Source: Marivirga salinae (GTDB lineage: Bacteria; Bacteroidota; Bacteroidia; Cytophagales; Cyclobacteriaceae). From it: a stretch of DNA of 64,000 bases. Position numbers and translations under genes: made by a program. Where the stretch lies: NCBI RefSeq assembly GCF_030503855.1, contig NZ_CP129971.1:69501-133500 (forward strand), given 5' to 3'. Every line of letters starts with the position of its first letter. Positions within the stretch are counted from its first letter, which is position 1. The notes under the pieces were generated by a model that was given only the letters and a program-made list of their open reading frames with translations, did no database searches and was not told where the DNA came from. Positions 8,703 to 43,406 of the stretch are shown piece by piece.

Positions 8703-9353
8703 TTATTTTGAATCTGCCGTTTCTTTGCTTAAAATTTCTTCAATTACAGCTTTCATTTCTGACTCTGATCTATAGCCTCTTGCAATTAGATAACCTTGAT
8801 TGCCAATGCTTAAGACCACAGAGGGGAAACCTCCAATCCCCATCTGTTGACCAATTTGAAATTCTTGATATGTTTTTTCTTTGTAAGCAGGATCTTCCAA
8901 TTTACTTTTGAAAACCTCCCAAGGTAAATCAAAACTTTCTATAAGTGTTCTGTAATTTTCAACTTCATTAAGATTTATACCCTGTTCATATAAAGTTGAT
9001 TGCAAAGCTGAGGCAAACTCAATGCTAGATTTATTGGTCATAGATTTATAAACCGTCATAGCGATACAAGGCAATTCAGAATTAAGCATTAAGCTTCCTT
9101 CCTCCAAAATATCCAAATAAGGTTTCCCAAACTTCACACCTGTCATTTCTTCTAAACGAGGCATAGCTTCCTTTAGATACTCTTTCATTTCGCTTAATGG
9201 CTTCACTCTATCTCCAAGCACCATTCCACCGCTGATGGCTTCAAAAGCTACTTGCTCTTGAAATTCCTTTTCCAATTTTTTAATCACTGGACTGAATCCA
9301 AAACACCATCCGCATAAAGGATCGTAGAAGTATAATAATTTTGCTTTTTCCAT
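8703..9353 (-). CDS. DsbA/FrnE-like thioredoxin-fold oxidoreductase
   Basis: A cytosolic 216-aa protein (no signal peptide) of the DsbA-family group that includes FrnE. The active site is at the first strand: LLYFYDPLCGWCFGFSPV, with redox motif CGWC (about residues 14-17). The cis-proline loop is IGGFPSVVLSIG (about residue 175), and the helical insertion lies between. Such proteins are linked to thiol and oxidative stress, but the client is unknown. The start codon is embedded in the repeat CATGTTGCTACAT, which is shared with the VOC and nitroreductase genes, suggesting common control. It is monocistronic, with its own terminator. Confidence 0.88.
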   Translation of the reverse strand: MEKAKLLYFYDPLCGWCFGFSPVIKKLEKEFQEQVAFEAISGGMVLGDRVKPLSEMKEYLKEAMPRLEEMTGVKFGKPYLDILEEGSLMLNSELPCIAMTVYKSMTNKSSIEFASALQSTLYEQGINLNEVENYRTLIESFDLPWEVFKSKLEDPAYKEKTYQEFQIGQQMGIGGFPSVVLSIGNQGYLIARGYRSESEMKAVIEEILSKETADSK

Positions 9354-9363
9354 GTTGCTACAT
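9351..9363 (-). promoter_or_regulatory. Candidate operator CATGTTGCTACAT at the DsbA-like gene
   Basis: A 13-bp near-palindrome covering the start codon of the DsbA-like gene. The identical 13-mer occurs twice upstream of the VOC gene (34642 and 34661), and a one-base variant lies upstream of the nitroreductase (43393). Chance recurrence of a 13-mer in 64 kb is very unlikely. Overlap with the start codon suggests repression close to the transcription start, or that the start codon was recruited into the site. Confidence 0.65.
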
Positions 9364-9403
9364 ACGTTGTGAAGAGGATTGAGTTGACAATTGAAATAAG
9401 AAT

Positions 9404-10537
9404 CTAATTAAATTCTCCAGAAAGTTGATAACCAAAAGAATCAGCACTATTGTCAGGGCTTAATGCCAATAAATACATTTTTGTTTTAGCTGGAACGGTA
9501 AATTTATAGGGTAATTTTTTAGTACTAATGAGATTTTTCAATTCCAATTTTAAAATACCTCTCATTTCTGTATTCATTCCGTTATTAACATAAATTAACA
9601 CGTAGTCCCCATAATTCTCTGTATCAAATTTAATTTTATTATTTAAGTCGGAAGGCTTCATTTCAGCTTCAAACTGTGATTCCTGAAAGCTATCCTGAAC
9701 TTCAAAATCAGGTTTTTCAGGATGGTATGCATAATAGCTATTCGATTCTCTAGGTATAAATAATTCCTCTTTATAATTTAAAAACTTTATTGGCAAAGTA
9801 ATATTTTTAAAATTCTGATTTTTAGCAACCATAAAATGAAGGTGAGGCCCAGAGCTCCAACCAGTATTACCACTGAGGCCAATGAATTGCCCTTTTTCAA
9901 TTTTATCTCCTTTTTCAACTAAACTCCCATTTTTTTGCAAATGAACATAGCTTCCAACCGTCCCATCGTCATGATAAACTTTAATAAAATTACCATATTT
10001 TTCAAATTTCGGGTCATTGCCTCCCACATTAGAATCTTCACTAACTTCTATCACTAAGCCATTTCTTGCAGCATAGATACTGTCTCCAATTTCTAAATTA
10101 AAGTCGATGGCATTTACCCCTCTATGTGTCCCTGAGCCATTATTCCCTTGCCCTATTCTGACCCTTTTCCCATGCTTATAGGGCAATAGATATGGATAAT
10201 CTTCATCAATTGTAAGTGATGGATCACCTATATTATAAAGAAAATTGAAGTCAAAGGAAGTACCCTTAGTTTCCTCATTTTTTTTCAACTTCAAAACCTC
10301 TTGACTCGCGGCATTTGCTGGAATAGTTCTGATGAAACTTTTCTCTCCTGAGCTAGAAGATAAATTTTCCATTTTCTGAAAATCAATCTTAACCGTATAA
10401 GGAACTGATTCATTGTTATTTGCATAGAACACAAAGCCTTCATCAGATTTTTTATAAAATATTTTAATTGGCTTATCTTGGGCTAGCAGAAAGCTTGAAT
10501 AAAAAGTATAGATAAGTAAAAATAAGAAGCTTTTCAT
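9404..10537 (-). CDS. Secreted M23-family (LytM) metallopeptidase
   Basis: A 377-aa exported peptidase with an N-terminal signal peptide (MKSFLFLLIYTFYSSFLLAQ), a beta-rich N-terminal region, and an M23 domain at about residues 125-235. Zinc and catalytic residues are visible: the H of GTHRGVNAIDF with the following D four residues later (HxxxD) and the HLH of SSGPHLHFMVAKN. The C-terminal 130 residues form a further beta-rich domain of unknown role. It probably cuts peptidoglycan cross-links in the periplasm. It is separated from its neighbours and appears to be transcribed alone. Confidence 0.9.
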   Translation of the reverse strand: MKSFLFLLIYTFYSSFLLAQDKPIKIFYKKSDEGFVFYANNNESVPYTVKIDFQKMENLSSSSGEKSFIRTIPANAASQEVLKLKKNEETKGTSFDFNFLYNIGDPSLTIDEDYPYLLPYKHGKRVRIGQGNNGSGTHRGVNAIDFNLEIGDSIYAARNGLVIEVSEDSNVGGNDPKFEKYGNFIKVYHDDGTVGSYVHLQKNGSLVEKGDKIEKGQFIGLSGNTGWSSGPHLHFMVAKNQNFKNITLPIKFLNYKEELFIPRESNSYYAYHPEKPDFEVQDSFQESQFEAEMKPSDLNNKIKFDTENYGDYVLIYVNNGMNTEMRGILKLELKNLISTKKLPYKFTVPAKTKMYLLALSPDNSADSFGYQLSGEFN

Positions 10538-10768
10538 TTGAATTTAATTTTAAGACCCTCCCGATTAGCATGGACAGGCTATGAAATTTATTTAAAACTT
10601 ATACGTATTACACTGTAAAAACAGTTGCATTGTTTTACAAAAATGAAATTAGGAAAGTTTATAAGTTCAATAATTAAATCACACAGAAAACTACTATTTA
10701 TTATTGAATATCAAATAATAAATACGTAATCCTATTGTAATCTAATAAACTCGAATTATTTTTTTCTA

Positions 10769-11467
10769 CTATTTTGATTCTTTAGAAAGAGGAAACAATA
10801 AGCTTAATTGAATGGCGGTTACTTGATTTGTAGATGTAGTAGGGTTCTCCCTAATAAAGTGGTTAACAGGAAGAATATTTGCAAATCCAGATTTGAAACT
10901 TCCGTCCAATTGCAGAATAAATAGAGAAAAATCATAGGAAAACCCTACTCCAGCATTAATCCCAAAGTCGCCTCTATTATCTCTATCTGGAGAATAATAA
11001 ATTTGAACCTGATCCAAATCCTGATCGTTTTCAATTGTAGTGGAAGAATTTAATGCCCATGCCACATAAACTCCGGCATCTACAAAGAATTTAAATTTTT
11101 CTTTACCAAACACCTCCCAATGCAAATAGAAAGGCATTTCTAAATAATTTATTTCTGTAATAACAGTATTAGTATAGAAAGTATTGGTTGAATCCAGAGT
11201 GTTTTGTCCCCAACCTTTGGTAGAATAGTTTAAATCTAATTGAATCCCAATCTTATCATTTTGCATGTAGCGGTATGAAATCCCAAAAGTTTGACTTACA
11301 AAATAAGCAGTTGGAAATCTGGTTGAAATAGGTCTATTGGTAAAATCAGTGAAATTTACAAAAGGAATATTAGCACCTCCTTTTACACCCAAGTAGGATT
11401 GGCCCTTAATTTCTTTTGTAGAAATTAGACATAAAAAAAGTATGAAAACTATAAATATCTTTTTCAT
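10769..11467 (-). CDS. PorT-like outer-membrane beta-barrel protein
   Basis: A 232-aa exported protein: signal peptide MKKIFIVFILFLCLISTKEIKGQ followed by SYLGVKGGANIPF, a beginning typical of the PorT-like (outer membrane protein beta-barrel) family. Alternating hydrophobic/polar strands run to the C-terminus, which ends with LFPLSKESK. The open frame has six extra N-terminal codons (MISYNS). The internal Met is preferred because it starts the signal peptide. No partner can be assigned. A 43-aa membrane-protein gene lies just upstream on the same strand. Confidence 0.8.
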   Translation of the reverse strand: MKKIFIVFILFLCLISTKEIKGQSYLGVKGGANIPFVNFTDFTNRPISTRFPTAYFVSQTFGISYRYMQNDKIGIQLDLNYSTKGWGQNTLDSTNTFYTNTVITEINYLEMPFYLHWEVFGKEKFKFFVDAGVYVAWALNSSTTIENDQDLDQVQIYYSPDRDNRGDFGINAGVGFSYDFSLFILQLDGSFKSGFANILPVNHFIRENPTTSTNQVTAIQLSLLFPLSKESK

Positions 11468-11496
11468 ACTATTATAACTTATCAAGATCGAAAAAA

Positions 11497-11628
11497 TTAC
11501 GATTCTGACTCCTCTTTATCAGTATTTCTTTTATCAATAAATGCGATTGCATTTACTAGGCCAACTAAAGTGACTAATATCCAAAAAAATGTGTTGGCTC
11601 CTTCTGTTACCGGTATATCGTAAAACAT
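11497..11628 (-). CDS. 43-aa single-TM membrane protein
   Basis: A short open frame reading MFYDIPVTEGANTFFWILVT, then LVGLVNAIAFIDKRNTDKEE and SES, then stop. It has one hydrophobic segment (about residues 14-31) flanked by a short N-terminus and a charged C-terminal tail, the usual layout of small membrane proteins. Its stop lies about 30 bp before the start of the barrel gene, which supports co-transcription. The family was not recognised. The alternative is chance, but the composition and stop/start spacing argue for a gene. Confidence 0.6.
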   Translation of the reverse strand: MFYDIPVTEGANTFFWILVTLVGLVNAIAFIDKRNTDKEESES

Positions 11629-11695
11629 ATTTTTCTCTTTATAATTTATTGGACAAAAATAGAGGATAAGCTTTTATCCTACAAGCATTATTGAT

Positions 11696-12964
11696 TTACT
11701 TTTTTAAAGTATCTTTCTCAAGATTAAATAAATCGTTCAAAACACCAATTAAGGTTTCTTCTTCACCTCTTTTGCAAGCGGCTTTCAGTTGTAAAACTGG
11801 AAGTTTAAGTATTTTCTGCATCATGCTTTTAGTCACCTTATCTACAATTTTACAGTCTTCGCTTTCAATATCTTTAAGATAACGAGCAAGTTCTTCTTGT
11901 CGTATCTGCTCTAATGCATTTTTCAGATTATTAATAGTTGGAGAAACTGCCATTTCTTTTGACCAGTCATTGAATTCATCCATTGATTCCTCAATGATTT
12001 CTTCTACTTGTGGAATAGCTTTAATTCGTTTCTCTAAGGCTTCATCCGCTTTACTTTTCACACTATCTACATTGTAAACCAATGCTGCAGGGTTTTCCTC
12101 TACCTCGTTACTTACTGAACGAGGAACAGATAAATCTATAAAATACTTAAAACTTAAAATATCTAAAGCATCAACTTTTTCCTTCGTAAAGATGGGTTCT
12201 GAAGCCCCAACTGAGGAGATAATTATATCTGCATCTTGAACTCCGTCCCACAATTCGGTATAAGGATGAACTTCAAAATTACATTCAGCTGCTAATACCT
12301 TAGCCTTATCTTCTGTTCTGTTGGTAATTTTAACAGAAAGTCTTGTATCTCCTACAAGATTCCGGCAAACATCCTCTCCTATTTCACCTACACCAACGAC
12401 CAAAACTCTTGGATTTTTAATATCCGCTGTTAAGGTTTTTACTAATTCAGTAGCTGCATAAGATACTGATGCTGCCCCATCTCTAAATGGAGTTTCTTGT
12501 ACCACTCTTTTATTAGTGAAGAAAATAGTATGCATCAAACGATGCAAGAAAGGACCAGCCAATTGTAAATCAGCCGAAAGCTGATAAGCTCTTTTAACTT
12601 GATTTGAAATTTGAATATCACCTACAACTTGAGCTTCTAAGCCCATTGAAACTCTAAAGAGACGTTCAACTGCAGGTTCATGCTCGTTAATAATTTCAAA
12701 ATAGGGTTTAAATGAATCAAAATCACTAATTCCTTTTTCAATCCCTATTAATTTTATGATATCTTCAGAAAGCTCCTCTTCATTGAAATAATATACCTCT
12801 GTTCTGTTGCAAGTCGAGAGCACCAAAACATCGGAAACTGAAGTAAACTCTTTGAAATAGTTCAATAACCTACCAATAGCCCCATCATTAAGAGAGACTT
12901 GTTCCCTAATTTCAATAGGGGCATTTTTGAATGATAAACTTATTGCTTTGAAATTTTCTTTCAT
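11696..12964 (-). CDS. hemA: Glutamyl-tRNA reductase
   Basis: Reduces glutamyl-tRNA to glutamate-1-semialdehyde, the first committed step of C5 tetrapyrrole synthesis. The N-terminal catalytic domain contains LVLSTCNRTEVYYF, with the nucleophilic Cys at about residue 50, and the family motif GLEAQVVGDIQISNQVK near residue 107. The NADPH-binding domain has RVLVVGVGEIGEDVCRNL (about 185-202), and a C-terminal helical dimerisation domain follows. The length (422 aa) is normal. No other hem gene is adjacent. A TATTTTTG promoter element lies about 20 bp upstream of the start. Confidence 0.97.
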   Translation of the reverse strand: MKENFKAISLSFKNAPIEIREQVSLNDGAIGRLLNYFKEFTSVSDVLVLSTCNRTEVYYFNEEELSEDIIKLIGIEKGISDFDSFKPYFEIINEHEPAVERLFRVSMGLEAQVVGDIQISNQVKRAYQLSADLQLAGPFLHRLMHTIFFTNKRVVQETPFRDGAASVSYAATELVKTLTADIKNPRVLVVGVGEIGEDVCRNLVGDTRLSVKITNRTEDKAKVLAAECNFEVHPYTELWDGVQDADIIISSVGASEPIFTKEKVDALDILSFKYFIDLSVPRSVSNEVEENPAALVYNVDSVKSKADEALEKRIKAIPQVEEIIEESMDEFNDWSKEMAVSPTINNLKNALEQIRQEELARYLKDIESEDCKIVDKVTKSMMQKILKLPVLQLKAACKRGEEETLIGVLNDLFNLEKDTLKK

Positions 12965-12981
12965 AATTCTAGATGAATACG

Positions 12982-12989
12982 CAAAAATA
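12982..12989 (-). promoter_or_regulatory. Bacteroidota-type -7 element of hemA
   Basis: TATTTTTG on the coding strand, an exact TAnnTTTG match, ends 18 bp before the start codon. The -33 position is only T-rich. Confidence 0.5.
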
Positions 12990-13156
12990 ACTTTTAAGTC
13001 ACAGGAAATAAAATAGATGTAAGTAGTTCTGCTTATTTATTATTTTTCTAAATAAGACGCCTTCCTATCACTGCCACTTAACACATAAAAATGCCAATTC
13101 ATTCCATTTATTTTTTTAGCAAAATAAAATAACGAAATTCGTGCAAAATTTAATCA

Positions 13157-14110
13157 ATGGAAACGAATACGATATTAGTAATAGGAGCAAATGGTCAGCT
13201 GGGCACCGAATTAACAGCTGAGTTAAGGGCGATTTATGGAAGCACTAATGTTATTGCAACCGACATTCAAAATCCAAAAAAGGAACCACTTCCCAATGAG
13301 CCTTTTGAGCAATTGGATGTTATGAATGCTGAAAAATTGAATAAAATAGTAGAGCAGTATAAGGTTACGGAGATCTATATGTTAGCAGCAATATTATCTG
13401 CCAAGGGAGAGCAAAACCCGATCTTTGCATGGGATCTCAATATGCAAAGCCTACTTAACGTATTAGAAGTAGCTAGAGAGAAAAAGCTATCAAAAGTTTA
13501 TTGGCCTAGTTCAATTGCTGTTTTTGGACCAAAATCTCCTGTTGACAATACTCCTCAGGATTGTGTAATGGATCCCAACACTGTCTATGGAATCAGTAAA
13601 TTGGCTGGAGAAAGATGGTGTGCATACTATAATGAAAAATATGGTGTTGATGTTAGAAGTTTAAGATATCCTGGATTAATAGGATACAAATCTTTGCCAG
13701 GTGGCGGTACTACTGATTATGCTGTCGATATTTTCCATAAAGCATTAAATAAAGAAGATTTTGAATGCTATTTGAGAGAGGATTCATATCTACCCATGAT
13801 GTATATGCCTGATGCTATTAAAGCTACTATTGATTTAATGCAAGCACCTGCAGAAAAGATTAGTGTAAGATCTAGTTATAATTTAGGAGCACTTAGTTTC
13901 ACTCCAAAAGATATTTATGAAGTAATCAAAAAGCAGCATCCTGATTTCAAAATTTCTTACAAAGTGGATTATAGACAAAAAATTGCTGATACATGGCCTA
14001 ACAGCATTGATGATAGCCAAGCGCAAAAAGATTGGAACTGGAAACCATCATTCACTTTAGAAGATATGGTAGAAGATATTTTGGAGAAACTTCCTGAGTA
14101 TGAATTCTAA
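13157..14110 (+). CDS. L-threonine 3-dehydrogenase, SDR (GalE-like) type
   Basis: A 317-aa extended short-chain dehydrogenase. It has the NAD-binding glycine motif VIGANGQLGTEL near the N-terminus (about 9-20) and the acidic strand-2 residue in IATDIQ. The catalytic serine region is VYWPSSIAVFGP (about 116-127), and the Tyr/Lys pair is VYGISKLAGE (about 145-154). The SSIAVFGP stretch and the LRYPGLIGYKSLPGGGTTDYAVDIF segment are characteristic of the epimerase-like threonine dehydrogenases found in Bacteroidota. It is predicted to oxidise threonine to 2-amino-3-ketobutyrate. A general UDP-sugar epimerase role is less likely. Single gene with a strong terminator. Confidence 0.88.
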   Translation: METNTILVIGANGQLGTELTAELRAIYGSTNVIATDIQNPKKEPLPNEPFEQLDVMNAEKLNKIVEQYKVTEIYMLAAILSAKGEQNPIFAWDLNMQSLLNVLEVAREKKLSKVYWPSSIAVFGPKSPVDNTPQDCVMDPNTVYGISKLAGERWCAYYNEKYGVDVRSLRYPGLIGYKSLPGGGTTDYAVDIFHKALNKEDFECYLREDSYLPMMYMPDAIKATIDLMQAPAEKISVRSSYNLGALSFTPKDIYEVIKKQHPDFKISYKVDYRQKIADTWPNSIDDSQAQKDWNWKPSFTLEDMVEDILEKLPEYEF

Positions 14111-14130
14111 ATAAGTTTTTAAGTATAAAA

Positions 14131-14174
14131 AAGGCTGATTTTAAGAGAAAAACTTAAAATCAGCCTTTTTTTTT
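14131..14174. terminator. Bidirectional intrinsic terminator
   Basis: A perfect 15-bp stem (AAGGCTGATTTTAAG / CTTAAAATCAGCCTT) with a 7-nt loop. On the plus strand it is followed by nine T. On the minus strand it also ends in a T run. It serves both the threonine dehydrogenase gene and the convergent M14 peptidase gene. Confidence 0.92.
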
Positions 14175-14181
14175 GCAGCAA

Positions 14182-16674: not shown

Positions 16675-16798
16675 ATATATATCCTTGAAGTGAGTGTGAA
16701 AATTATTTGTCAATTTACATTGTTTTTTAAAATATCGAAAATGTAATTGACAGACGGTTAGAACACAAGCTATACCAGACAATTGTAATTTTTCTCAC

Positions 16799-16823
16799 AA
16801 AAAAAGGTCTCATTTCTGAGACC
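16799..16823 (-). terminator. Intrinsic terminator after the Ser/Arg/Asn-rich protein gene
   Basis: Stem GGTCTCA / TGAGACC with loop TTTC, followed on the minus strand by seven T, 26 bp after the stop codon. Confidence 0.88.
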
Positions 16824-16848
16824 CTTTAAATTTGATTTAAACCTAATA

Positions 16849-31674: not shown

Positions 31675-33693
31675 ATGTTACTAAAATCATTCATTGAAGA
31701 AGCTCAAAATAACAGTAAATATTTAGATGGAAATCTATCAATTGAATTTGGTTTTCTTCCAAAAGAGGAGCCTTCTCAGACCAATAATGAAGCTTTAAAA
31801 GAATGGGAAGAATTATGCGAAAGAATTCCTGAACTTTATTTTAAAGATCAATCACAAGAAGAAATTGAGAACCTCACACCTTTGTACATTGATAAAATTA
31901 AAGGGCAAGATATAACCAGAGCTGTATCAGTAATGAGTCTATTAGCTTCCGCTTATTGGCGACATGGAACAAAAAATAAATTCTCCATTAGGAATACAAT
32001 TGAATATGGAGAGCTACCCAAAGTATTGGAAGAACCTTGGATTGAACTGAGCAAAAGATTAAATAGAGAAAAAGCCCCTTACCAAAGCAGCTATGACTTA
32101 TTCATGAACAACTTCAAGTTGAAGCCCAATTTAGAATATAATATTGAAAATATTAAAATTGAGAATCTTGAAGTACTAAATAAGAGCTTTGGAAATGAAC
32201 CTGAACGGATTTTTTATATGTCCTTTGTGGAAATTCATGCAGCATTAACTCCTGTAGTGGAATGTTTATGTGAAATTGAAAATGCTATAAAAAGTGAAAC
32301 GCTCAGTACTAATGAGAAATTTGATAACCTTAGCCGGTATCTAAACAAAATTTCATCCGCAATTAAACAAGCTAACAGAGCTTTAGTGAAAATAAGCCCT
32401 GTAAAAAGATCAAAAACCTTTTGCGACCCTATTCAATGGGCAAAAACTGTTGGTGTTTTTGCATTGCCGCCTGCAAATTACACACAAGGCGGGACAAGTG
32501 GCACTAGCACACCTATGGTGCATGTATTAGACGCAATTTGTGGAAGAAAAAGTTACGATTCTTATTATGGTGAATATGTTTCCAAGGAAGGAGAACCATT
32601 ATTACCTCTAGTAATTAAGGAATTCACCAAATTAGTTTATAAACTTGATGTTAAAGGCTGGATAGAAAATCAAGAAGTGAAGAATGATGAGTATGCTAAT
32701 TTGATCGATTCATTTAACAACCTTATTGATACTTATACTGGCGCAAATGGATTTTTAGACAAGCATACTGCCAAAGTGTTTAATTACTTGGGAGTAGCCA
32801 CATTTGTTGGAAGAAATGAATCCACCAGTGGGCATCAAAGATATATCACCAAAGAGACATGGAAAAAAGTATCGGACGAATTGAAAATAGCCCAATTTGA
32901 AAGAAAAAAGTTGTTTGATGAAGAAATTCAGCTTAACTCAAAATCGGAACTGAAAATTGAAGAAAGTGAAAATACTATTTCTGCTTTTGAATTAGTAAAA
33001 CATTATAGATCAAATGATGCCCTAATCGCAATTAATTCAAATGTGTTTGAAGTCACTAGCTATTTGGAGCTACATCCTGGTGGAAAGTCAATTATTCAAC
33101 CTTATTTAGGGCATGACGCAACACAAGAGTTTAATATGGTTTCTGGGCACTCCACTAATATGGCTCAAAAATTATTAAGTAAATATTGGGTAGGAAAATT
33201 AACGGAAGAGAGAAACTATCCTGAATTCCACCACTATGAAAAGCTTTTAAAAGCATTCACCAGAACCTACAATATCATAGACCTACAACTCAGTAATGAA
33301 ATTAAAGAGTTAAAATCTGCTACACTTAATTTGACTCAAATAAAAAATCAATTTATATCAGATTTACTGCAGAATTTAATAAGTCTTCTGGAGGATAAAG
33401 GGATTTCAATTCGGTTCAATCACTCAAGCTGGAAAGAATTTATGGATTACATGAGCAAAACCGAATTAGAGTCTTTTGATAATTTTATATTGGATGAGCT
33501 ACATAAAAATTTAAAGCAGTTGTTAACATTCGGTCAGAAACTATTAGAAAATTCTATTGACCTTATGGTGGATTTTATAGAATCCAATAATCAAGCACCT
33601 ATTGATGAATTAGAACTTCTTCTACAAAAAGAATTCAAAAATTATGAAGAAAAACTAAATGAGTCCTTTAGCGAAACCTTAGATGCCGTATAA
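31675..33693 (+). CDS. IDO/PrnB-like heme dioxygenase fused to a cytochrome b5 domain
   Basis: A 672-aa soluble protein with two recognisable parts. Residues about 1-410 resemble the indoleamine-dioxygenase superfamily, PrnB/DUF1864 branch: FYMSFVEIHAALTPVVECL, FALPPANYTQGGTSGTSTPMVH (the GGTSGTS at 272-278) and NESTSGHQRYITKETW, with a likely proximal heme His at 387. Residues about 435-515 form a cytochrome b5 domain with both heme ligands: His467 in HPGGKSIIQPYLGHDA and His492 in SGHSTNMAQKLL, 25 residues apart as expected. The last 150 residues are helical and unassigned. I infer a heme oxygenase acting on an indole-like substrate, with a built-in electron carrier. The substrate is unknown. 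Single gene next to two gene remnants. Confidence 0.82.
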   Translation: MLLKSFIEEAQNNSKYLDGNLSIEFGFLPKEEPSQTNNEALKEWEELCERIPELYFKDQSQEEIENLTPLYIDKIKGQDITRAVSVMSLLASAYWRHGTKNKFSIRNTIEYGELPKVLEEPWIELSKRLNREKAPYQSSYDLFMNNFKLKPNLEYNIENIKIENLEVLNKSFGNEPERIFYMSFVEIHAALTPVVECLCEIENAIKSETLSTNEKFDNLSRYLNKISSAIKQANRALVKISPVKRSKTFCDPIQWAKTVGVFALPPANYTQGGTSGTSTPMVHVLDAICGRKSYDSYYGEYVSKEGEPLLPLVIKEFTKLVYKLDVKGWIENQEVKNDEYANLIDSFNNLIDTYTGANGFLDKHTAKVFNYLGVATFVGRNESTSGHQRYITKETWKKVSDELKIAQFERKKLFDEEIQLNSKSELKIEESENTISAFELVKHYRSNDALIAINSNVFEVTSYLELHPGGKSIIQPYLGHDATQEFNMVSGHSTNMAQKLLSKYWVGKLTEERNYPEFHHYEKLLKAFTRTYNIIDLQLSNEIKELKSATLNLTQIKNQFISDLLQNLISLLEDKGISIRFNHSSWKEFMDYMSKTELESFDNFILDELHKNLKQLLTFGQKLLENSIDLMVDFIESNNQAPIDELELLLQKEFKNYEEKLNESFSETLDAV

Positions 33694-34114: not shown

Positions 34115-34603
34115 TTAATTCATCTCTTCGAGTAAAGCTTCAAGATTAAGTGGGCGAGTATACATTTCTATCTCACCCTCAGCATTTCTTGGCCATTCTT
34201 CCTTTGGTCTGTCCCAATAAAGTTCAACGCCATTCCCATCAGGATCATCCAAATATAAGGCCTCAGAGACACCATGATCTGCTACTCCTGTAAACCTATA
34301 ATTAGCTTCTCTCAAGCGAGCAAATATCTCTGCCAAGGATTTCCTAGTGGGGTAGACAATAGCCGTATGGAACAAACCAGGCGCATAATCCGGTGCGGGT
34401 TCTGCACCTTTACTTTGCCAGGTATTTAAGCCAATATGATGATGATAACCGCCTGCGGAGATAAAAGCTGCTTGATCGCCCAACTTCTGAATAATTTCGA
34501 AGCCCAATAAACCATGATAAAAATCCAAGGCTTTATCCAGATCAGAAACTTTTAAATGTATATGACCAATTCTTGTCTGTGCAGGGATTTTGTAATCTTT
34601 CAT
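34115..34603 (-). CDS. VOC-family (glyoxalase/ring-cleaving dioxygenase-like) protein, CatE-like
   Basis: A 162-aa vicinal-oxygen-chelate protein: RIGHIHLKVSDLDKALDFYHGLLGF (first module, metal His in IGHIHL), GGYHHHIGLNTWQSKG and LFHTAIVYPTRKSL (second metal His), and the closing VSEALYLDDPDGNGVELYWDRP with the terminal Glu ligand. Members with this pattern are catechol-2,3-dioxygenase-like (CatE/MhqO type) and act on catechols or quinone-derived adducts. Two copies of the CATGTTGCTACAT repeat upstream point to the same control as the DsbA-like and nitroreductase genes. Confidence 0.87.
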   Translation of the reverse strand: MKDYKIPAQTRIGHIHLKVSDLDKALDFYHGLLGFEIIQKLGDQAAFISAGGYHHHIGLNTWQSKGAEPAPDYAPGLFHTAIVYPTRKSLAEIFARLREANYRFTGVADHGVSEALYLDDPDGNGVELYWDRPKEEWPRNAEGEIEMYTRPLNLEALLEEMN

Positions 34604-34637: not shown

Positions 34638-34675
34638 TTTACATGTTGCTACATTGTTTACATGTTGCTACATTG
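34638..34675 (-). promoter_or_regulatory. Tandem candidate operators upstream of the VOC gene
   Basis: Two exact 19-bp direct repeats, TTTACATGTTGCTACATTG (34638-34656 and 34657-34675), lie about 35 bp upstream of the VOC start. Each contains the 13-mer also found at 9351. Nineteen-base spacing puts the two sites about two helical turns apart, which suits cooperative binding. Confidence 0.72.
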
Positions 34676-35109
34676 TATATTGAATGTTTTTCGATTTATT
34701 ATTTTGGATATTACCCATAAATCAAAAAAAGGAAGCTGCTGTTTAATAAAAAACTATATTAATATTTTATATAAATATATAGTTCAAAGCCTATGTCTGA
34801 GCTAAACATTAAACTCACACAAAATAAATATATATCTTGTTTTCTTATTAATACTTGATTTTAACAACATGAAGAGTATAAAGGTGACAAAAAAACCTAC
34901 AAAGACATTAGTTTAAAACAATACTTCTTGCTCAAGATAATTATTAGTCGTTAAATTATACACATTAATCTCCATAAGTACATTATACCTGTAAATTATA
35001 TAACAAAGTATATTATACCTGTGAATTATGTAACAAAGTATATATCTAAATACTTATCTTACACATATTAAATACGTTGCAGAACAGCAAACTTAAAACA
35101 CCCAGCATA
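34676..35109. repeat. AT-rich intergenic region with two 30-bp tandem repeats at 34981-35040
   Basis: About 430 bp between the VOC operators and the first CheB-CheR gene, without a credible gene. The repeat units (YATTATACCTGTRAATTATRT and the following AACAAAGTA) are 27/30 identical. A similar but untandemised AT-rich character continues to the next gene. It may hold the promoter and binding sites for the CheB-CheR kinase gene. No exact TAnnTTTG was found. Confidence 0.6.
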
Positions 35110-38100
35110 ATGAGTGAAAAAAAGTTAAAATCAAACACAAAAAATTCCGACAAGCATCATGATTCTTATTCGAAAAATACAAAAATGATAAACGCTTCAC
35201 GATCATCTCACTTCAACCAAAATGATATGACTGAATCAGATATAAATAACAGCTGCTATATTGTGGGCATTGGAGCATCTTCTGGTGGAATGGAAGCCAT
35301 TCATTCTCTATTCGACAACACCCCTGCTGATGGCGTGTCATATGTAATAATCCAGCATCTTTCTCCCAATCATAAAAGTTTTATGGCGGAGCTATTGGAA
35401 ATACACAGTAAACTAAAGATTTGTGAAGTAGAAAACGAAATGGTAGTAAAGCCTAATCAGGTCTATACCATACCGAAAGGGAAAAACATGACGATTAGAG
35501 ACAAAACGCTGTACTTAACAGATAGTATACCTAAACAAACTAATACAGCTGTTGATATTTTTTTTAAATTCTCTCGCAGAAGATCAAAAAAGTAAAAGTA
35601 TAGCGGTTATTCTATCAGGGATGGGTAATGACGGAACCAAAGGGATTGAGGCCATCAAAAGGAATGGAGGTATGGTAATAGTTCAGGAACCGTCAAGTGC
35701 AAAGTCGCCTAGTATGCCACTAAGTGCCATTGAATCTGGAAATGCTGATGCTATTCTGGCTCCAAATTTAATCCCTGACGAAATAATTTCTTATTTAAAA
35801 AGCGAAGAACTTAAAGCCAAGCTCGCTGAAGAAGTCACCCAAAGCAATGAAGATCAGCTTTCTGAAATCCTTAATTTAGTAAAGCAATATACTCCATTAG
35901 ACTTCACAGATTATAAACGTCCTACTATTATCAGAAGAATAGTAAACAGGATGACTAAAAATAATATCAGTAGCTTAAATGGTTATGTAAATTACATCCA
36001 TGAGAACACGAACGAACTTGAGATTTTGGCTCATGAATTCCTCATAAGTGTAACGAAATTTTTCAGAGACAAAGAAGCTTATGAGATTTTAAGAGAAAGA
36101 ATAATTCCTGAAATCGTTAAAAATAAATTAACGGTAGACTCCCTTAAAATATGGGTGGTGGGATGTGCAACTGGAGAGGAAGCTTACTCTTTAGCTATCT
36201 TGGTAATGGAACATCTAACAGAGGTGAAAAAAAATCTAGAAGTTAAGATTTTTGCTAGCGACATTGATAAAGAAGCATTGTCTGTTGCCTCAAAAGGAAT
36301 TTATAATTCAAGCATTAAGAAAGATATTTCGGATGATTTACTCGATAAATACTTTATAAAAGAAGAAAATACCTTTAGGGTTAGGGACAATATCAGGAAA
36401 ATGATCATTTTTGCCGATCATGACATCGTGAAACAGCCTCCTTATGGTAAAATTGACCTCATAAGTTGTCGAAATCTGTTGATCTATCTTAATCCCGTAC
36501 TACAAAATAAAATTCTTTCTTCATTACATTTCTGTCTTAATAAGGACGGATATTTATTTCTAGGACCAAGTGAAAGTTTAGGAGAAGTAAAGAAATCTTT
36601 CAATATGGTCGATAAAAAATGGAAGATCTTTAAAAGCATAGAAACGCCCAAATATCTTAGAGATACAACCTACACCACCCCTGGATTAAATTTACCGAAT
36701 ATATCATTCCAAAAAAGTGCGACAACTGAAAAAGTTAATTCTGATAGAAACTTAACGGAAATTCATAACCGCAGCATTCTTGAAGAATTGGGGTTTGAGG
36801 CCGGTATCTATGTAGATTCAAATTTTTCTATTTTAGAAACCTTTGGGAATTATGACAAGTATCTATCTCCCAAATTTTTCAATTTCAACTTACTTGAAAT
36901 GCTACCTGATCAGCTTTCTATTGCCACTTCTGTATGCCTTAGGAAAGCCGTTAAAAATCAAGGCAAAAGCAGCATGTCAGATGTGAAATTTATAAAAAAT
37001 GACCAAAAACAATTTATTGATATAATGGTCTTGCCCATCAGTAAGTCTAATGACAATAGTCCTGATATTTCATTGATTTTGTACAGTGATCATCAGCATG
37101 AGGAAGAAAACTTAGATAATGAAGAATCTTTTGAATTAGATTCTCATGCACGACAACACATCAATGATTTAAAGCATGAGTTAGCCATTTCTCAAGAAAA
37201 ACTTCACAAAAGTTATGATGCCCTCGATGAATCTAATGATAATATAACCTCTTACAATGAAGAATTAATATCGAGCAATGAGGAATTGCAAAGCACAAAT
37301 GAAGAGCTACAATCTGTTAATGAGGAATTACAGACAGTAAATAATGAATATCAGTTGAAGATAAAGGAATTAGCAGAGCTTAATGATGATTTAACTAACT
37401 TTTTTAAAGGTACGGTTAATGGGCAACTTTATATTGACAATGATTTGATTTTGCGCAAATTCACCTCTGCGACTACCAAACAAATAAATCTTAAGACCAC
37501 CGATATAGGGAGACCTTTAAGCGATATTTCTACTAAAATAAAACTCCCTACACTAATTACTGATATAAAGAATGTTATTCAATCTTCAGAAGAAACAATA
37601 AAAGAAGTAGAAACCATTGACGAGCGGTGGTATCAAATGGTGATTACTCCTTACTTTAAAGAACAGGAAAATATCAATGATGGTGTTATTGTTACCTTTA
37701 ATGATATTACCGAATTGAAAAAAACGCAGTATAAGCTATCACGCATTAATGAAGATCATAATACTTTTATTTACTCTGTTTCTCATGATTTAAGAGGCCC
37801 ATTATCCAGTCTGAAAGGATTGATATCATTTTTAACAGATGCACAGAAAGCTGGCAGTATAGGGACAGAAAAAATAATGGATATGATTGAGGTATCTATT
37901 AACAACCTATTACAAACTATTGATGAATTATCAGACATTGCTAAAATTGAAAACGAAATAGAAAATAGCGAGCCTGTTAATTTAGAGGATGTATGTGATG
38001 AAGTTAAAATTGGGCTTCAAGAACTAATAACTAAAACTAAAACAAACATAATTTGTGATTTTCAGGAGCCTACTATATCATTTTCTAAGAAAAATTTAAG

Positions 38101-38413
38101 AAGTGTATTATTAAATTTGATCAGCAATGGTATAAAATATAGATCCCCCGAAAGAGAGCCTGAAATCCTTATAAGCTCAGAAAAGAAAGATGGCTTTGTA
38201 GTATTATCCATTCAAGATAACGGACTAGGAATGGAAGCTGACAAAATTGAGGAAATATTCAATGTCTTTAAAAGAAGACATAATCATGTTGAAGGATCGG
38301 GTATTGGATTATACCTGGTGAAAAAAATCATAAATAATGCGAATGGAGAAATTTCGGTGGATAGTGAGCTAGGTAAAGGTTCAACTTTTACTGTTCGTTT
38401 TAAAAGTGAATAA
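35110..38413 (+). pseudogene. CheB-CheR-PAS histidine kinase, copy 1, frameshifted in a T8 tract
   Basis: Two overlapping frames together code for the same domain series as the intact paralogue at 39362. The series is a CheB methylesterase domain (GIGASSGGMEAIHS, IIQHLSPNHKSF, then LSGMGNDGTKGI), a CheR methyltransferase domain (FFRDKEAYEIL, VGCATGEEAYSLAIL, IFASDID), and a long NEELQSTNEELQSVNEEL coiled coil. PAS, HisKA (SVSHDLRGPLSS) and HATPase (SNGIKYRS, DNGLGM, GSGIGLYL) domains follow. The shift lies at 35558-35565, where eight T replace the seven needed to read VDIFLNSLAEDQ. It may be a true mutation, a phase-variable tract or a sequence error. A start at 35227 (MTESDINN), matching the paralogue, is also possible. 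Confidence 0.85.
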
Positions 38414-38460
38414 TTATTTTTAACATTTAGATTTTTATTATCAAAACTGATATTTTTAAT

Positions 38461-38500
38461 AGCCTAGTATTCAAATAAAATTGAATACTAGGCTTTTTTA
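38461..38500 (+). terminator. Intrinsic terminator after CheB-CheR copy 1
   Basis: A perfect 14-bp stem (AGCCTAGTATTCAA / TTGAATACTAGGCT) with a 6-nt loop, then six T, 48 bp past the stop. Confidence 0.9.
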
Positions 38501-38762
38501 TTATAATCAAAATTTTTCTACTACTACATTCTAGTCAAAGAAATTAACTAAGGTTCTCTTGAAAATTAAAATGAAACTCTAATTTTCATTATATCAACTA
38601 TAAAGTCCTTATTCTGAAATTTTATCATATCTAAAATCTCAAAAAGCTTTGATTTAGAGGAAATCTGCGGTTTTTGATATTAAAAATAGATTTATATCTA
38701 AAATTATATTTTGTAGGTTCTACTTTTCCTTTTTGTTTGATCAAAAAGAAAGAAAAAATCAA

Positions 38763-38836
38763 GACAAAAAGATGTCAGCCAGAGGCTGACCAGCCTCTGG
38801 CTGGCTTGTCTGCCCAAACAGGCCCGCCTTTTTGTC
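38763..38836. repeat. GC-rich REP-like element between the two CheB-CheR genes
   Basis: Outer arms GACAAAAAG (38763-38771) and CTTTTTGTC (38828-38836) enclose a perfect 12-bp stem-loop, CAGCCAGAGGCT / AGCCTCTGGCTG, with loop GACC (38776-38803), plus a CCTGTTTGGGC-like tail. It is much more GC-rich than the surrounding AT-rich DNA and resembles the dispersed intergenic repeats of this phylum. Confidence 0.65.
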
Positions 38837-39361
38837 CTCCTGCCCGCCCTCTTCGAGTAAATATTTTTTGGTTTTGAAGGTTTGTAGTGTTAATCAAGAG
38901 GAGCCTAACTATTGCTGTTTAAAGCAAAATTTTCAAGTGATTGGCTTTTGTAATTTTTTGTCTTTGTATGCTAAAACCCAAGTCATATTTCTCTTATGCC
39001 GATCTATTAATCAAGTAAAATGAAATCCTGCTCTCTATTTTTATATGAAAGCAGTATTCTGTAAATATTTATTGTAAATTGATAAGTAAATACACTCATA
39101 AAATTATTTAAAACAGTGTAAATTCTTTTAAAACTGCCGTCTATCAATGGAATAGAAGCACTCATCCTACAATACATATAACTTAATGAGAATGCATGCA
39201 ATTGTATGTACTATATTTCCTAACTTTAAACCTTATAATCAAGGAGTTAATAAAATCCATCACCTTAAAATATTAAGTCAATATTAGTTTACAGACCCAA
39301 ATCACTTACAAGAAAGTTTTAGTTAAGCACTTCCCCAAAATCACAAAAGAATCAAAAAGAA
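38837..39361. other. Intergenic region upstream of CheB-CheR copy 2
   Basis: About 525 bp without a convincing gene. Short frames on both strands have no recognisable features. It presumably contains the promoter of the downstream gene. No repeat matching the 30-bp units upstream of copy 1 was seen. Confidence 0.5.
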
Positions 39362-42300
39362 ATGACAGAATCTGATTTAAATAAAAGCTGTTACATTATT
39401 GCAATAGGGGCATCAACAGGAGGAATGGAAGCAATTCACACCCTTTTTGATCACACGCCTACCGATGATGTTTCATATGTCATTTTACAGCACCTTTCCC
39501 CAGATTACAAAAGCTTTATGGCAGAGCTACTGGAAAAGCACAGTAAATTAAAGATTTGTGAAGTAGAAAATGAAACTTATGTGAAGCCCAATCAGGTGTA
39601 TTTACTTCCTAAAGGGAAAAACATGACTATTCAGAATAAAATTCTACACTTAACGGATAGAGAATCAGAACACAACACCACTATTGATGTATTTTTAAAT
39701 TCCCTTGCAGAAGATCAAAAAGAAAAAAGTATAGCTGTCATTCTATCTGGTATGGGTGAAGATGGCACTAAAGGAATTTCTGCCATAAAAAAAAATGGCG
39801 GTATGGTGATAGTGCAAGATCCATCAAGTGCTACGGCTGCTAATATGCCACTAAGCGCAATTGAATCAGGACATGCCGATGCTATTCTTGCGCCTCACTT
39901 AATTCCTGAAGAAATAATTTCTTATTTAAAGCGTGAAGATCTTAGAGAAAAATTATCAGATCTAGTCACGCAAAGCAATGGAGAGCAATTATCTGAAATC
40001 CTCGATTTAATCAAAGAAAACACACCTCTAGACTTTACTAATTATAAGCATCCGACCATTGTAAGAAGAATAGTCATTAGAATGACTACTAATAAGATTA
40101 ATAGCCTAAAGGACTATATTAATTATATTCATGAAAACATGGGGGAGCTCGAGATTTTGGCTAATAGTTTCCTCATTAGTGTAACAAAGTTTTTTAGAGA
40201 CAAAGAAGCTTATGAAATACTAAAAGAAAAAGTAATCCCTGAAATCATCGAAAATAAACAGATTGATGAACCCTTAAAAATATGGGTGGTCGGGTGCGCC
40301 ACTGGTGAAGAGGCCTATTCGCTCGCTATATTAATTAAAGAGCATCTTCAGGAAGTGAAGAAAAAATTAGAGGTTAAAATTTTTGCGAGTGATATTGATG
40401 AGAGCGCACTTGCGGTTGCCTCAAAAGGCATTTACCATTCGAATATTAAAAAGGATGTTCCAGAGAAGCTCCTTAAGAAGTATTTTAGAGAAGAAAACCA
40501 TAAGTATCGGATAAAGGACATTATTAGGAAAATGATCATTTTTGCTAATCATGATATTGTAAAACATCCCCCATATGGTAAAATTGACTTAATGAGTTGC
40601 CGAAATCTTTTGATTTATATCAATCCACTTCTTCAAAAAAAGATTCTCTCCTCATTACATTTTTGCCTTAACAAGGAAGGATATTTATTTTTAGGACCAA
40701 GCGAAAGTTTAGGTGATTTACAAAAATCTTTCTCCACGGTAGATAAGAAATGGAAAATATACCAAAGCATAAAAACTCCAACCTATCTTAAAGATACAAC
40801 TTACACTACCCCCGGATTAAATTTGGTCAATAATCCGTCACAAAAGGATTATGAAGGTGAAAAAATCAGTAAAGAAAGAAAGCTTTCCGAAATTAAAAAT
40901 CATCACATACTACAGGAATTGGGGTATGAGGCTGGTATTTATGTAGACTCTGACTTTTCTATCTTAAAAACTTTTGGGAATTTCGAAAAATACCTTTTAC
41001 CTAAATTTTTCAATTTCAACTTACTTGAGTTACTTCCAGAAGAGCTTTCTATTGCCACTTCTGTATACCTTAAAAAAGCTACCAAAAATAAAAAGAAAAG
41101 TCGAATAGCAAAGGTTAGGCTCAGTCAGAATAGCAAAAAACAAGTAGTAAATATTGAAGTTGTTCCCTTCAATCAACCAGAAGATAGCGATACTGTTATT
41201 TCACTTGTTTTATATAGTGATTATAAGGAAGTAGAGGAGAGCGCTGAAAATGAAGAATTCTTTGAACTAGATTCTCATGCACAACAACATATTAATGACT
41301 TAAAGCATGAGTTATCGGTAGCTAAAGAAAAACTGAAAAAAAGTCATGAGGCTTTAGAGGAGTCCAATGACAATATCACCTCTTACAACGAAGAATTAAT
41401 TTCAAGCAATGAAGAATTGCAAAGCACAAATGAAGAATTGCAATCTGTTAATGAGGAACTGCAGACTGTCAATAATGAATATCAATCAAAAATTAAGGAA
41501 TTAGCTGAGCTAAATGATAACTTAACTAACTTTTTCAAAGGCATGGTAAATGGGCAACTTTATATCGATAAAGATATGATATTGCGCAAATTCACCCCAC
41601 CTGCCACTAAGCAAATAAATCTTAAAAATAGTGATGTAGGCAGACCTTTAAACGACATATCAACCAAAATCAAACTTCCTACGCTGATTGATAGCATACA
41701 AAATGTTTTTGAATCTTCAAATGGGATTGAAGAAGAAATACAGACATTGGATAACCGCTGGTATCAAATGGTGATTACTCCTTATTTCAAGGAGAAAGAA
41801 AGAGAACATGACGGAGTTATCATTACGTTTAATGATATAACTTCCTTGAAAAAAATCCAGCAAAAGCTATCACGCATAAATGCTGATCATAGCACATTTA
41901 GTTACTCTGTTTCCCATAATATAAAAGGACCATTGGCTAATATAGAAGCAATCATGCCTTATTTAAAAAATCCAGAAAAATCAGGTAAGAAAAACATGGT
42001 GGAAATGGTAGAAAAAGCAATTGACAATATTGCTAAAACCGTTGATGAATTATCTGATATTGCCAATATTGAAAGTGAAATAGAAGAAAGAGAGGCTGTT
42101 AATATAAATGAATTATTAAAAGAAGTTAAAACTAGCCTTCAGATAGAGTTGAATGAATCTAAAGCTTCAATTATTTGTGATTTTAAGGAGCCTACTATTT
42201 CCTTTTCCAAGAAAAATTTGAGAAACATATTATTCAACTTACTCAGTAATGCGATCAAATATAGAGCTTCTGAAAGAGCCCCCGAAATTAAAATTAGCAC

Positions 42301-42532
42301 ACAGAAGGAAAATAATTATACCATTTTATCAGTACAGGATAATGGACTAGGAATGAAAGCTGATAAAATAGATAAGGTATTTAATATTTTCACACGAATA
42401 CATAATCATGTTGAAGGATCCGGTGTCGGATTGTATCTAGTGAAAAAACTTATTGACAATGCAGGGGGAGAAATTAAAGTTGAAAGCGAGTTAGATAAAG
42501 GTACTACTTTCAAAGTGTATATTGAAAATTGA
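39362..42532 (+). CDS. CheB-CheR-PAS histidine kinase fusion, copy 2 (intact)
   Basis: A 1056-aa soluble multidomain signalling protein. CheB-type methylesterase covers about 8-190 (AIGASTGGMEAIHT, LQHLSPDYKSFMAE, LSGMGEDGTKGI: Ser, His and Asp of the triad). CheR-type methyltransferase covers about 205-465 (FFRDKEAYEIL, VGCATGEEAYSLAIL, FASDIDESAL, SCRNLLIYINP). A PAS-like part and a coiled coil (NEELISSNEELQSTNEELQS, about 690-720) follow, then PAS, HisKA with His852 in SVSHNIKGP, and HATPase with LLSNAIKYRA, DNGLGM and GSGVGLYLVKKL. The residue after the phospho-accepting His is Asn, not the usual acidic residue. It is about 70% identical by eye to copy 1, so the pair arose by tandem duplication. 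No chemoreceptor gene is nearby. Confidence 0.9.
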   Translation: MTESDLNKSCYIIAIGASTGGMEAIHTLFDHTPTDDVSYVILQHLSPDYKSFMAELLEKHSKLKICEVENETYVKPNQVYLLPKGKNMTIQNKILHLTDRESEHNTTIDVFLNSLAEDQKEKSIAVILSGMGEDGTKGISAIKKNGGMVIVQDPSSATAANMPLSAIESGHADAILAPHLIPEEIISYLKREDLREKLSDLVTQSNGEQLSEILDLIKENTPLDFTNYKHPTIVRRIVIRMTTNKINSLKDYINYIHENMGELEILANSFLISVTKFFRDKEAYEILKEKVIPEIIENKQIDEPLKIWVVGCATGEEAYSLAILIKEHLQEVKKKLEVKIFASDIDESALAVASKGIYHSNIKKDVPEKLLKKYFREENHKYRIKDIIRKMIIFANHDIVKHPPYGKIDLMSCRNLLIYINPLLQKKILSSLHFCLNKEGYLFLGPSESLGDLQKSFSTVDKKWKIYQSIKTPTYLKDTTYTTPGLNLVNNPSQKDYEGEKISKERKLSEIKNHHILQELGYEAGIYVDSDFSILKTFGNFEKYLLPKFFNFNLLELLPEELSIATSVYLKKATKNKKKSRIAKVRLSQNSKKQVVNIEVVPFNQPEDSDTVISLVLYSDYKEVEESAENEEFFELDSHAQQHINDLKHELSVAKEKLKKSHEALEESNDNITSYNEELISSNEELQSTNEELQSVNEELQTVNNEYQSKIKELAELNDNLTNFFKGMVNGQLYIDKDMILRKFTPPATKQINLKNSDVGRPLNDISTKIKLPTLIDSIQNVFESSNGIEEEIQTLDNRWYQMVITPYFKEKEREHDGVIITFNDITSLKKIQQKLSRINADHSTFSYSVSHNIKGPLANIEAIMPYLKNPEKSGKKNMVEMVEKAIDNIAKTVDELSDIANIESEIEEREAVNINELLKEVKTSLQIELNESKASIICDFKEPTISFSKKNLRNILFNLLSNAIKYRASERAPEIKISTQKENNYTILSVQDNGLGMKADKIDKVFNIFTRIHNHVEGSGVGLYLVKKLIDNAGGEIKVESELDKGTTFKVYIEN

Positions 42533-42747
42533 ATTACAAAGTATTTTCACCTAAACATTTACCATTTTCTTCTGAGTTCTTTGCCACTCGTATTTATGAT
42601 TCCTGATTAAAACAACTCATGGCAAAGAACTTATTTTTTGTGACCTTAGTGAAAGCCTCTGTGTAAATCGTATGTTCACCATTGTTAAAAATAATAGTAG
42701 CCTATGGCTACCATTTATTCTCTTTTGTGGTGGAAAAATTTATCTTT

Positions 42748-43356
42748 TCAAAAACTACTTTCGCCCCAAGCTTCATTAAAAACAAATTCATTGAGCGATT
42801 TTCTTGTGCGCTCTTTGGTTTCCCTATCTTTTAAATCCTCAGGTACATCTTCAATGTCTAGTTTATAACCTAAGGCAATTCCAGAAACGATCTCATAGTC
42901 TTCCGGAATGTCAAAATCCTTTTGGATATTATCTCTAACAATACCAGCCATCTGATGTAAATATAATCCCATAGCAGTTGACTGAGCAGACATATTCCCC
43001 ATTGCCAAACCGAGATCGTGCCAGCTGTGCATATTGGGTCTTCCATTTTTATCAAAGGTTTTCTTGGCGAAAGTAAGCATCAATACCGGAGCATTTTGTG
43101 CCCAAGTTTGATTATGAGGATTAAGTCCATTCAAGACTTTCTGATAATGATCCCCTTGATCTTTAGTAGCCACCACAAATCGCCAAGGCTGTTCATTAAA
43201 ACAAGATGCAGCCCAGCGAACAGCTTCAAAAAGTTGCTCCAATTGATCTTTGGCAACCTCCTTCTCAGAGAAAGCTACCGGACTTTTCCTTTTCTTAATT
43301 AAATCTAATTGAACTTGAGCTAAGTCTTGTGAGGTATCTATATTTTGATTTTCCAT
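42748..43356 (-). CDS. Nitroreductase-family flavoprotein
   Basis: A 202-aa FMN-dependent NAD(P)H oxidoreductase: KKRKSPVAFSEKEVAKDQLE, then the FMN-binding stretch AVRWAASCFNEQPWRFVVA near residue 45, a MLTFAKKTF strand, the dimer segment SWHDLGLAMGNMSAQ, and EIVSGIALGYK near the C-terminus. Related enzymes (MhqN, YodC) detoxify quinones and nitro compounds in Bacillus. The shared repeat CATGTTACTACAT upstream of the start suggests co-regulation with the VOC and DsbA-like genes. Confidence 0.88.
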   Translation of the reverse strand: MENQNIDTSQDLAQVQLDLIKKRKSPVAFSEKEVAKDQLEQLFEAVRWAASCFNEQPWRFVVATKDQGDHYQKVLNGLNPHNQTWAQNAPVLMLTFAKKTFDKNGRPNMHSWHDLGLAMGNMSAQSTAMGLYLHQMAGIVRDNIQKDFDIPEDYEIVSGIALGYKLDIEDVPEDLKDRETKERTRKSLNEFVFNEAWGESSF

Positions 43357-43392
43357 AATTGTCTTTTTAGATCAATACGAAAATTCAAATTA

Positions 43393-43406
43393 CATGTTAC
43401 TACATG
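43393..43406 (-). promoter_or_regulatory. Candidate operator upstream of the nitroreductase gene
   Basis: CATGTTACTACATG, one base different from the 13-mer at 9351, 34642 and 34661. On the coding strand it runs directly into TAATTTG, a likely -7 region, so a bound protein would block the promoter. Confidence 0.65.

What the first reader, a model, noticed from the sequence alone, without database searches (positions are those of the whole stretch)
9351..43406. A 13-bp sequence shared by three unlinked redox genes: a candidate quinone/electrophile-stress regulon
CATGTTRCTACAT occurs at 9351, 34642, 34661 and 43393. The first three are identical and the fourth differs by one base. All copies lie at the 5' ends of minus-strand genes for a DsbA/FrnE-like thiol protein, a CatE/MhqO-like VOC protein and an MhqN/YodC-like nitroreductase. 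A random 13-mer is expected far less than once in 64 kb. In Firmicutes the same enzyme set is repressed by MhqR or YodB/CatR and induced by quinones or diamide. The site sequence here differs from those known operators, so a separate MarR- or HxlR-type repressor is likely. No regulator gene is in the window.
Basis: partly seen in the sequence, partly recalled or inferred. Interest (0 to 1): 0.82.

Follow-up and report, generated by a model that had tools for sequence, protein, structure and literature searches.

The report
Conserved detoxification-gene switch in Marivirga
A short mirror-symmetric DNA word, found at the starts of the same detoxification and drug-export genes in several species of the marine bacterial genus Marivirga, is very probably the docking site of a repressor of a chemical-stress defence, and a likely repressor gene lies elsewhere in the genome.

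Summary
The four 13-mers are the only exact copies in the 4.49-Mb genome. They contain a near-palindrome, ATGTWRYWACAT. All 9 nitroreductase orthologues found by protein search in ten genomes of the genus (Marivirga, by named matches) carry it exactly. It also starts the MATE exporter in 8, a DsbM-like thiol protein in 7 and an MFS transporter in 7 of 10 genomes. Nitroreductase and VOC are one operon behind one site in 7 of 9 genomes. In the window CheB/CheR-kinase genes split them and each half has its own site. This is strong evidence for an operator.

The best regulator candidate is a MarR gene outside the window, in a MarR-DoxX-hydrolase operon, present in 10/10 genomes. Its own dyad is imperfect but positionally conserved in 8/10. 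Its 30 best homologues carry exact ATGTNNNNACAT upstream in 15 cases (0.22 expected), but exact ATGTWRYWACAT in only 2. HxlR is unlikely. Binding, repression and the inducer are untested. Verdict: a real regulon, a new variant of the MhqR-like kind.

The parts
9351..9363 (+). Site 1 (12-mer 9352-9363); overlaps the start codon of the DsbM-like gene
   Evidence: Exact match; site at the same position at this gene in 7 of 10 genus genomes
8703..9353 (-). DsbM-like cytosolic thiol/disulfide oxidoreductase, 216 aa, CGWC
   Evidence: Pfam Thioredoxin_5 and DSBA; PDB 2in3, 3kzq, DsbM 5hfi
34642..34654 (+). Site 2, proximal site of the VOC gene (12-mer 34643-34654)
   Evidence: Exact match
34661..34673 (+). 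Site 3, distal site of the VOC gene, 19 bp from site 2 (12-mer 34662-34673)
   Evidence: Exact match; the stand-alone VOC gene of G123 has one site
34115..34603 (-). Single-module VOC protein, extradiol-dioxygenase/glyoxalase-like, 162 aa
   Evidence: Pfam PF00903; weak PDB matches to catechol 2,3-dioxygenase 3lm4 and 7q2a
35077..42532 (+). Two CheB/CheR/PAS/histidine-kinase-type genes lying between VOC and nitroreductase, which are adjacent in 7 of 9 genomes; the first is spread over two frames (35077-35595 and 35552-38413)
   Evidence: Pfam; gene order
43393..43405 (+). Site 4, operator of the nitroreductase gene (12-mer 43394-43405)
   Evidence: Exact match; exact 12-mer upstream of 9 of 9 genus orthologues found by protein search
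42748..43356 (-). Nitroreductase-family flavin oxidoreductase, 202 aa
   Evidence: Pfam PF00881; PDB 4eo3, 2fre

Best explanation
The near-palindrome ATGTWRYWACAT is the operator of a dimeric MarR-type repressor. Bound at or shortly before the start codon, it blocks transcription of a detoxification set: nitroreductase, VOC dioxygenase-like enzyme, DsbM-like disulfide reductase, a MATE and an MFS exporter, and the repressor's own MarR-DoxX-hydrolase operon. A toxic compound, most likely a quinone-like electrophile or oxidant, releases it. SHOWN: the sites, their conservation and positions, the gene families, the operon split. INFERRED: that a protein binds (about 0.93), that it is the MarR at G000:C1:3106318-3106764 (about 0.6; I had 0.65 and lowered it because 7 of 23 own-genome regulators have a site at 2 mismatches or fewer and only 2 of 30 homologues have the exact 12-mer), that it represses, and that electrophiles are the signal (about 0.45).
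For: Exact 12-mer upstream of 9 of 9 nitroreductase orthologues found without using the site, with diverged flanks (identity 0.37-0.62 around it). Same site at MATE 8, DsbM-like 7, MFS 7 of 10 genomes, at constant distance (21-23 nt) for MATE and overlapping the start codon for DsbM-like. Both halves of the split operon keep a site in G000 and G123. Positions within about 41 nt of the start codon in the four core genes suit a repressor. MarR orthologue in 10/10 genomes with GTGTTTA-ATGTnnnnACA(A/G)-TAC upstream in 8/10. Among the 30 best family homologues, exact ATGTNNNNACAT in 15 (expected 0.22) and ATGTWRYWACAT with at most 1 mismatch in 8 (expected 0.45). The same MarR type lies next to nitroreductase in G011, G015, G093 and a Glassbacteria MAG. 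Wing Cys96 in 36 of 37 aligned MarRs and 100 of the 120 listed homologues.
Against: No binding or expression data. The MarR's own dyad has 1 mismatch in 4, 2 in 4 and 3 in 2 of 10 genus genomes, and sites with at most 2 mismatches also lie near 6 other regulators of the 23 screened. Of 39 further MarR homologues only 3 have an exact and 8 a one-mismatch ATGTNNNNACAT. MarRs adjacent to nitroreductase (G011, G015, G093) lack it. In G025, G028 and G100 the nitroreductase has ATGTATATACAT but the MarRs examined have no exact dyad. Total 12-mer counts are not above the reversed control in G118, G119, G120 and G121. G121 keeps the MarR but has no close nitroreductase. G120 has the nitroreductase site but Asn at the Cys96 position and no clear MarR block.
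Confidence: 0.6

Rival explanations
1. The dyad is an operator, but another regulator binds it (a family not screened, or a different MarR); the MarR-DoxX-hydrolase dyad only resembles it.
For: Imperfect MarR dyad; weak link in more distant homologues; only MarR, HxlR and TetR families were searched in the own genome.
Against: None of 10 TetR genes has a site with at most 1 mismatch; the one other MarR with such a site (L031) does not conserve it in the 89%-identical orthologues of G118 and G119; the HxlR frame has an in-frame stop; close MarR homologues are strongly enriched for the dyad.
Confidence: 0.3
2. Same MarR and operator, but the signal is a phenolic, antibiotic-like or other pocket ligand and the regulon is a drug-efflux/xenobiotic response rather than an electrophile response.
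For: Two exporters belong to the conserved core; S. aureus MhqR senses quinone by a ligand pocket without thiol chemistry (PMC6798810 and PMC12893000, passages); G120 lacks the cysteine.
Against: The DsbM-like disulfide reductase and nitroreductase point to redox or electrophile damage; the cysteine is well conserved.
Confidence: 0.35
3. The protein bound at the dyad is an activator.
For: Transcription starts are unmapped, so geometry is inferred from start codons only.
Against: Core-gene sites overlap or lie within about 41 nt of start codons, too close for a usual activator site.
Confidence: 0.06
4. The matches are chance or a recent repeat without function.
For: The 12-mer is not rare: 93 sites against 67 for the reversed control in ten genomes, 33 of them inside open frames.
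Against: 0.003 exact copies expected in the window; 9 of 9 nitroreductase orthologues carry it although flanks diverge.
Confidence: 0.02

Closest known systems
MhqR regulon (B. subtilis, S. aureus)
   Same: MarR-type regulator; nitroreductase, ring-cleavage-type VOC and alpha/beta-hydrolase genes; palindromic operator near the transcription start (PMC6798810, passages). S. aureus MhqR (PDB 9smz) is the fourth-best PDB match of the candidate, E 6e-8.
   Different: Operator TATCTCGAA-aTCGAaATA, unrelated to ATGTWRYWACAT; no Cys at the Cys96 position in the S. aureus protein; here two exporters and a DsbM-like protein join in; the VOC protein is a single short module.
YodB / CatR / QsrR (DUF24, HxlR-type) quinone regulons
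   Same: Similar enzyme sets induced by quinones and diamide (PMC6798810, passages).
   Different: HxlR-type regulators with an N-terminal redox cysteine; the only HxlR frame here has an in-frame stop.
BmoR of Bacteroides fragilis
   Same: MarR repressor in the same phylum that affects thiol/disulfide genes and represses its own operon (PMC6158253, passages).
   Different: Inverted repeat described with TTTCC half-sites and one directly bound operon. Its protein sequence was not compared here.

Membership tests
MarR-type autoregulated repressor regulon | MarR winged-helix protein conserved with the regulon | tested here: met
   PF01047 match; orthologue in 10 of 10 genus genomes; G121 keeps it without a close nitroreductase
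MarR-type autoregulated repressor regulon | Palindromic operator shared by targets and the regulator's own promoter | tested here: inconclusive
   Targets yes; own promoter has a conserved but imperfect dyad, 1-3 mismatches
MarR-type autoregulated repressor regulon | Specific DNA binding and derepression on regulator loss | not testable with these tools
   Needs gel shift and a deletion
MhqR regulon | MhqR operator sequence | tested here: not met
   ATGTWRYWACAT differs from TATCTCGAA-aTCGAaATA
MhqR regulon | Nitroreductase, VOC dioxygenase, DoxX and hydrolase under one MarR | tested here: inconclusive
   All four kinds occur near dyads, but DoxX is below the Pfam cut-off and the MarR operon's dyad is imperfect
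MhqR regulon | Induction by quinones | not testable with these tools
   No expression data
YodB/CatR/QsrR regulon | Intact HxlR-family regulator in the genome | tested here: not met
   One HxlR frame, with an in-frame TAA; other genus genomes not searched for it

The most novel reading that the evidence does not exclude
A Bacteroidota MarR subfamily senses electrophiles through a single cysteine in its DNA-contacting wing (Cys96), a mode distinct from the MhqR ligand pocket and the YodB/QsrR N-terminal cysteine, and through ATGTWRYWACAT commands a genus-wide programme of detoxification, disulfide repair and efflux.
Probability: 0.28. Interest if true: 0.72.

Novelty: new variant of a known kind. 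Interest (0 to 1): 0.55.

Why it matters
It gives a concrete operator, target list and candidate repressor for chemical-stress control in Bacteroidota. In ten keyword searches of the held open library I saw no described MarR regulon of this phylum with this operator (several demanded all terms and returned nothing, and subscription papers are mostly not held). The split operon is a natural experiment: both halves carry the operator.

Tried and rejected
HxlR as regulator: one frame with an in-frame stop; a sequencing error is not excluded. TetR: none of 10 genes has a site with at most 1 mismatch. MarR L031: a one-mismatch site 140 nt upstream, absent in the G118 and G119 orthologues. Peroxidase (PF00141): exact site 51 nt upstream in G000 only, left out of the core. 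Hydrolase/VOC pair at L024: site 152 nt upstream inside the preceding frame, G000 only. MscS-type channel 4/10, Sulf_transp protein 3/10, YceI 3/10, 118-aa protein 3/10 genomes: possible further members. No consistent promoter box could be placed by eye, so none is claimed. One search scanned loci without regard to strand and is superseded; an apparent G042 nitroreductase site there was an artefact. In one search the identity of the outer bases is forced by how the sites were chosen and is not used as evidence. No structure was predicted.

Full report
OBSERVATION. CATGTTRCTACAT occurs exactly at 9351, 34642, 34661 and 43393, each at the 5' end of a minus-strand gene. A first-order model expects 0.003 copies in the window. 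The window is bases 69501-133500 of a one-contig genome of 4,494,741 bp, and these are its only exact copies; one mismatch adds nine places, six inside genes.

THE UNIT. The site is a near-palindrome, ATGTWRYWACAT. The own genome has 15 against 5 for the reversed pattern. Ten genomes of the genus hold 93 against 67 (my sum). The excess lies in G000, G055, G116, G122, G123 and G124; G118 and G119 tie with the control; G120 and G121 fall below it. Raw counts are therefore weak evidence.

CONSERVATION. The unselected test is the nitroreductase: its orthologues were found by protein search in 9 of 10 genomes (G121 has only a distant relative), and all 9 carry the exact 12-mer within 120 nt upstream. 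Flanks have diverged (identity 0.37-0.62). Starting instead from the 93 sites and clustering the genes behind them gives nitroreductase in 9 genomes, MATE in 8, DsbM-like in 7, MFS in 7, an MscS-type channel in 4, and YceI, a Sulf_transp protein and a 118-aa protein in 3 each (families). Of the 93 sites, 33 lie inside open frames of at least 80 aa and 28 have no candidate gene. In this second approach the matching letters are forced by selection; what counts is recurrence at the same gene and distance (MATE 21-23 nt; DsbM-like always overlapping the start codon). Whether MATE, MFS or DsbM-like orthologues without a site exist in the remaining genomes was not examined. In one search one of the 8 MATE copies (G123) did not pass the script's filter.

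ORGANISM. G055 shares a 184,814-base contig with Marivirga sericea DSM 4125 and G119 a 3,942,954-base contig with M. arenosa, so the genus is Marivirga. The species of the window is not known.

THE SPLIT OPERON. Nitroreductase and VOC are adjacent behind one site in G055, G116, G118, G119, G120, G122 and G124: 7 of 9. In the window two CheB/CheR/kinase-type genes lie between them and VOC has two sites of its own 19 bp apart. In G123 VOC stands beside a CheB-type gene with one site, on another contig than the nitroreductase, whose contig ends 343 bases after it; this fits the same split. VOC homologues in the family have no site of their own (1 of 30, the window itself). How VOC obtained its sites is not shown; operon duplication with reciprocal loss is a guess.

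THE ENZYMES. The 8703-9353 product (CGWC) matches 2in3, 3kzq and the cytosolic disulfide reductase DsbM. The VOC protein is one module with weak similarity to catechol 2,3-dioxygenases. The nitroreductase is closest to 4eo3 and 2fre; the labels MhqN/YodC and CatE/MhqO were not tested directly.

THE REGULATOR. The own genome has one HxlR frame with an in-frame TAA, 13 PF01047 matches, 9 over the cut-off, and 10 TetR genes. All 23 MarR- and TetR-type places were screened: one has a site with 1 mismatch (L031, not conserved) and six have 2, among them the MarR at G000:C1:3106318-3106764. That MarR heads an operon with a DoxX-like gene and an alpha/beta hydrolase. Its orthologue is in 10 of 10 genomes at 70-97% identity, with GTGTTTA-ATGTnnnnACA(A/G)-TAC upstream in 8 of 10; G121 has a related block further upstream and G120 none clear. 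The best site has 1 mismatch in four, 2 in four and 3 in two of the ten. Of the 30 best family homologues, 15 have exact ATGTNNNNACAT within 120 nt upstream (0.22 expected; 24 with one mismatch, 3.24 expected); the full 12-mer is exact in 2 and within one mismatch in 8 (0.45 expected). Of 39 further homologues that I picked from the lower part of the list, 3 have an exact and 8 a one-mismatch dyad. Outside the genus, G007, G061 and G088 have dyads with at most one mismatch at both nitroreductase and MarR; G025, G028 and G100 have an exact one at the nitroreductase only, among the MarRs examined.

NEIGHBOURS. This MarR type lies beside nitroreductase in G011, G015 and G093, without the dyad. 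In 6 of 80 nitroreductase loci from named genomes a MarR-like gene was seen, one 56% identical to a family member (Glassbacteria). YceI follows MarR in 7 of 30 loci and a ring-cleavage-type VOC in 6 of 30 (by reading; Pfam confirmed for L111, L116 and L119).

SENSING. Cys96, between R93 and D99-R100-R101, is Cys in 36 of 37 aligned MarRs and in 100 of the 120 listed of 6408 database homologues, else Asn 12, Ser 7, Ala 1. That this is the wing follows from known MarR folds. S. aureus MhqR has no Cys there and senses quinone without thiol chemistry (PMC6798810 and PMC12893000, passages). A thiol switch is plausible and unproved; G120 has Asn.

MECHANISM AND VERDICT. Core-gene sites overlap or lie within about 41 nt of start codons, so blocking of initiation or early elongation is the simplest reading; the S. 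aureus MhqR operator spans -6 to +12 of its start. Observation confirmed; operator and regulon strongly supported; this MarR as repressor likely; quinone trigger plausible only.

Noticed in passing
window 35077-38413 and 39362-42532: Two tandem CheB-CheR-PAS-histidine-kinase genes; the CheB domain of the first is spread over two overlapping frames, the second is in one frame.
   Followed up: partly
window 31675-33693: An indoleamine 2,3-dioxygenase-like domain and a cytochrome b5 domain in one 672-aa frame.
   Followed up: no
L029 (G000:C1:4143502-4143759): The only HxlR frame of the genome has an in-frame TAA.
   Followed up: partly
L007/L019 (G000:C1:2138205): Two peroxidase-like genes in tandem; the second (PF00141) has an exact site 51 nt upstream in this genome only. 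The first was named by eye.
   Followed up: partly
nitroreductase upstream regions of the genus; VOC of G000 and G123: CGTA follows the dyad after 14 nt in most nitroreductase leaders and in the G000 VOC leader; perhaps part of the promoter or transcript start.
   Followed up: no
L110, L113, L119, L127, L131: A second own-operator type, ATGTATATACATTAAATACA or close to it, upstream of MarR homologues, mostly those next to YceI.
   Followed up: partly
L024 (G000:C1:3837383): Hydrolase (PF02230) and two-module VOC pair resembling MhqD/MhqO by eye, with ATGTAATAACAT 152 nt upstream, not seen at this gene in the other genomes.
   Followed up: partly
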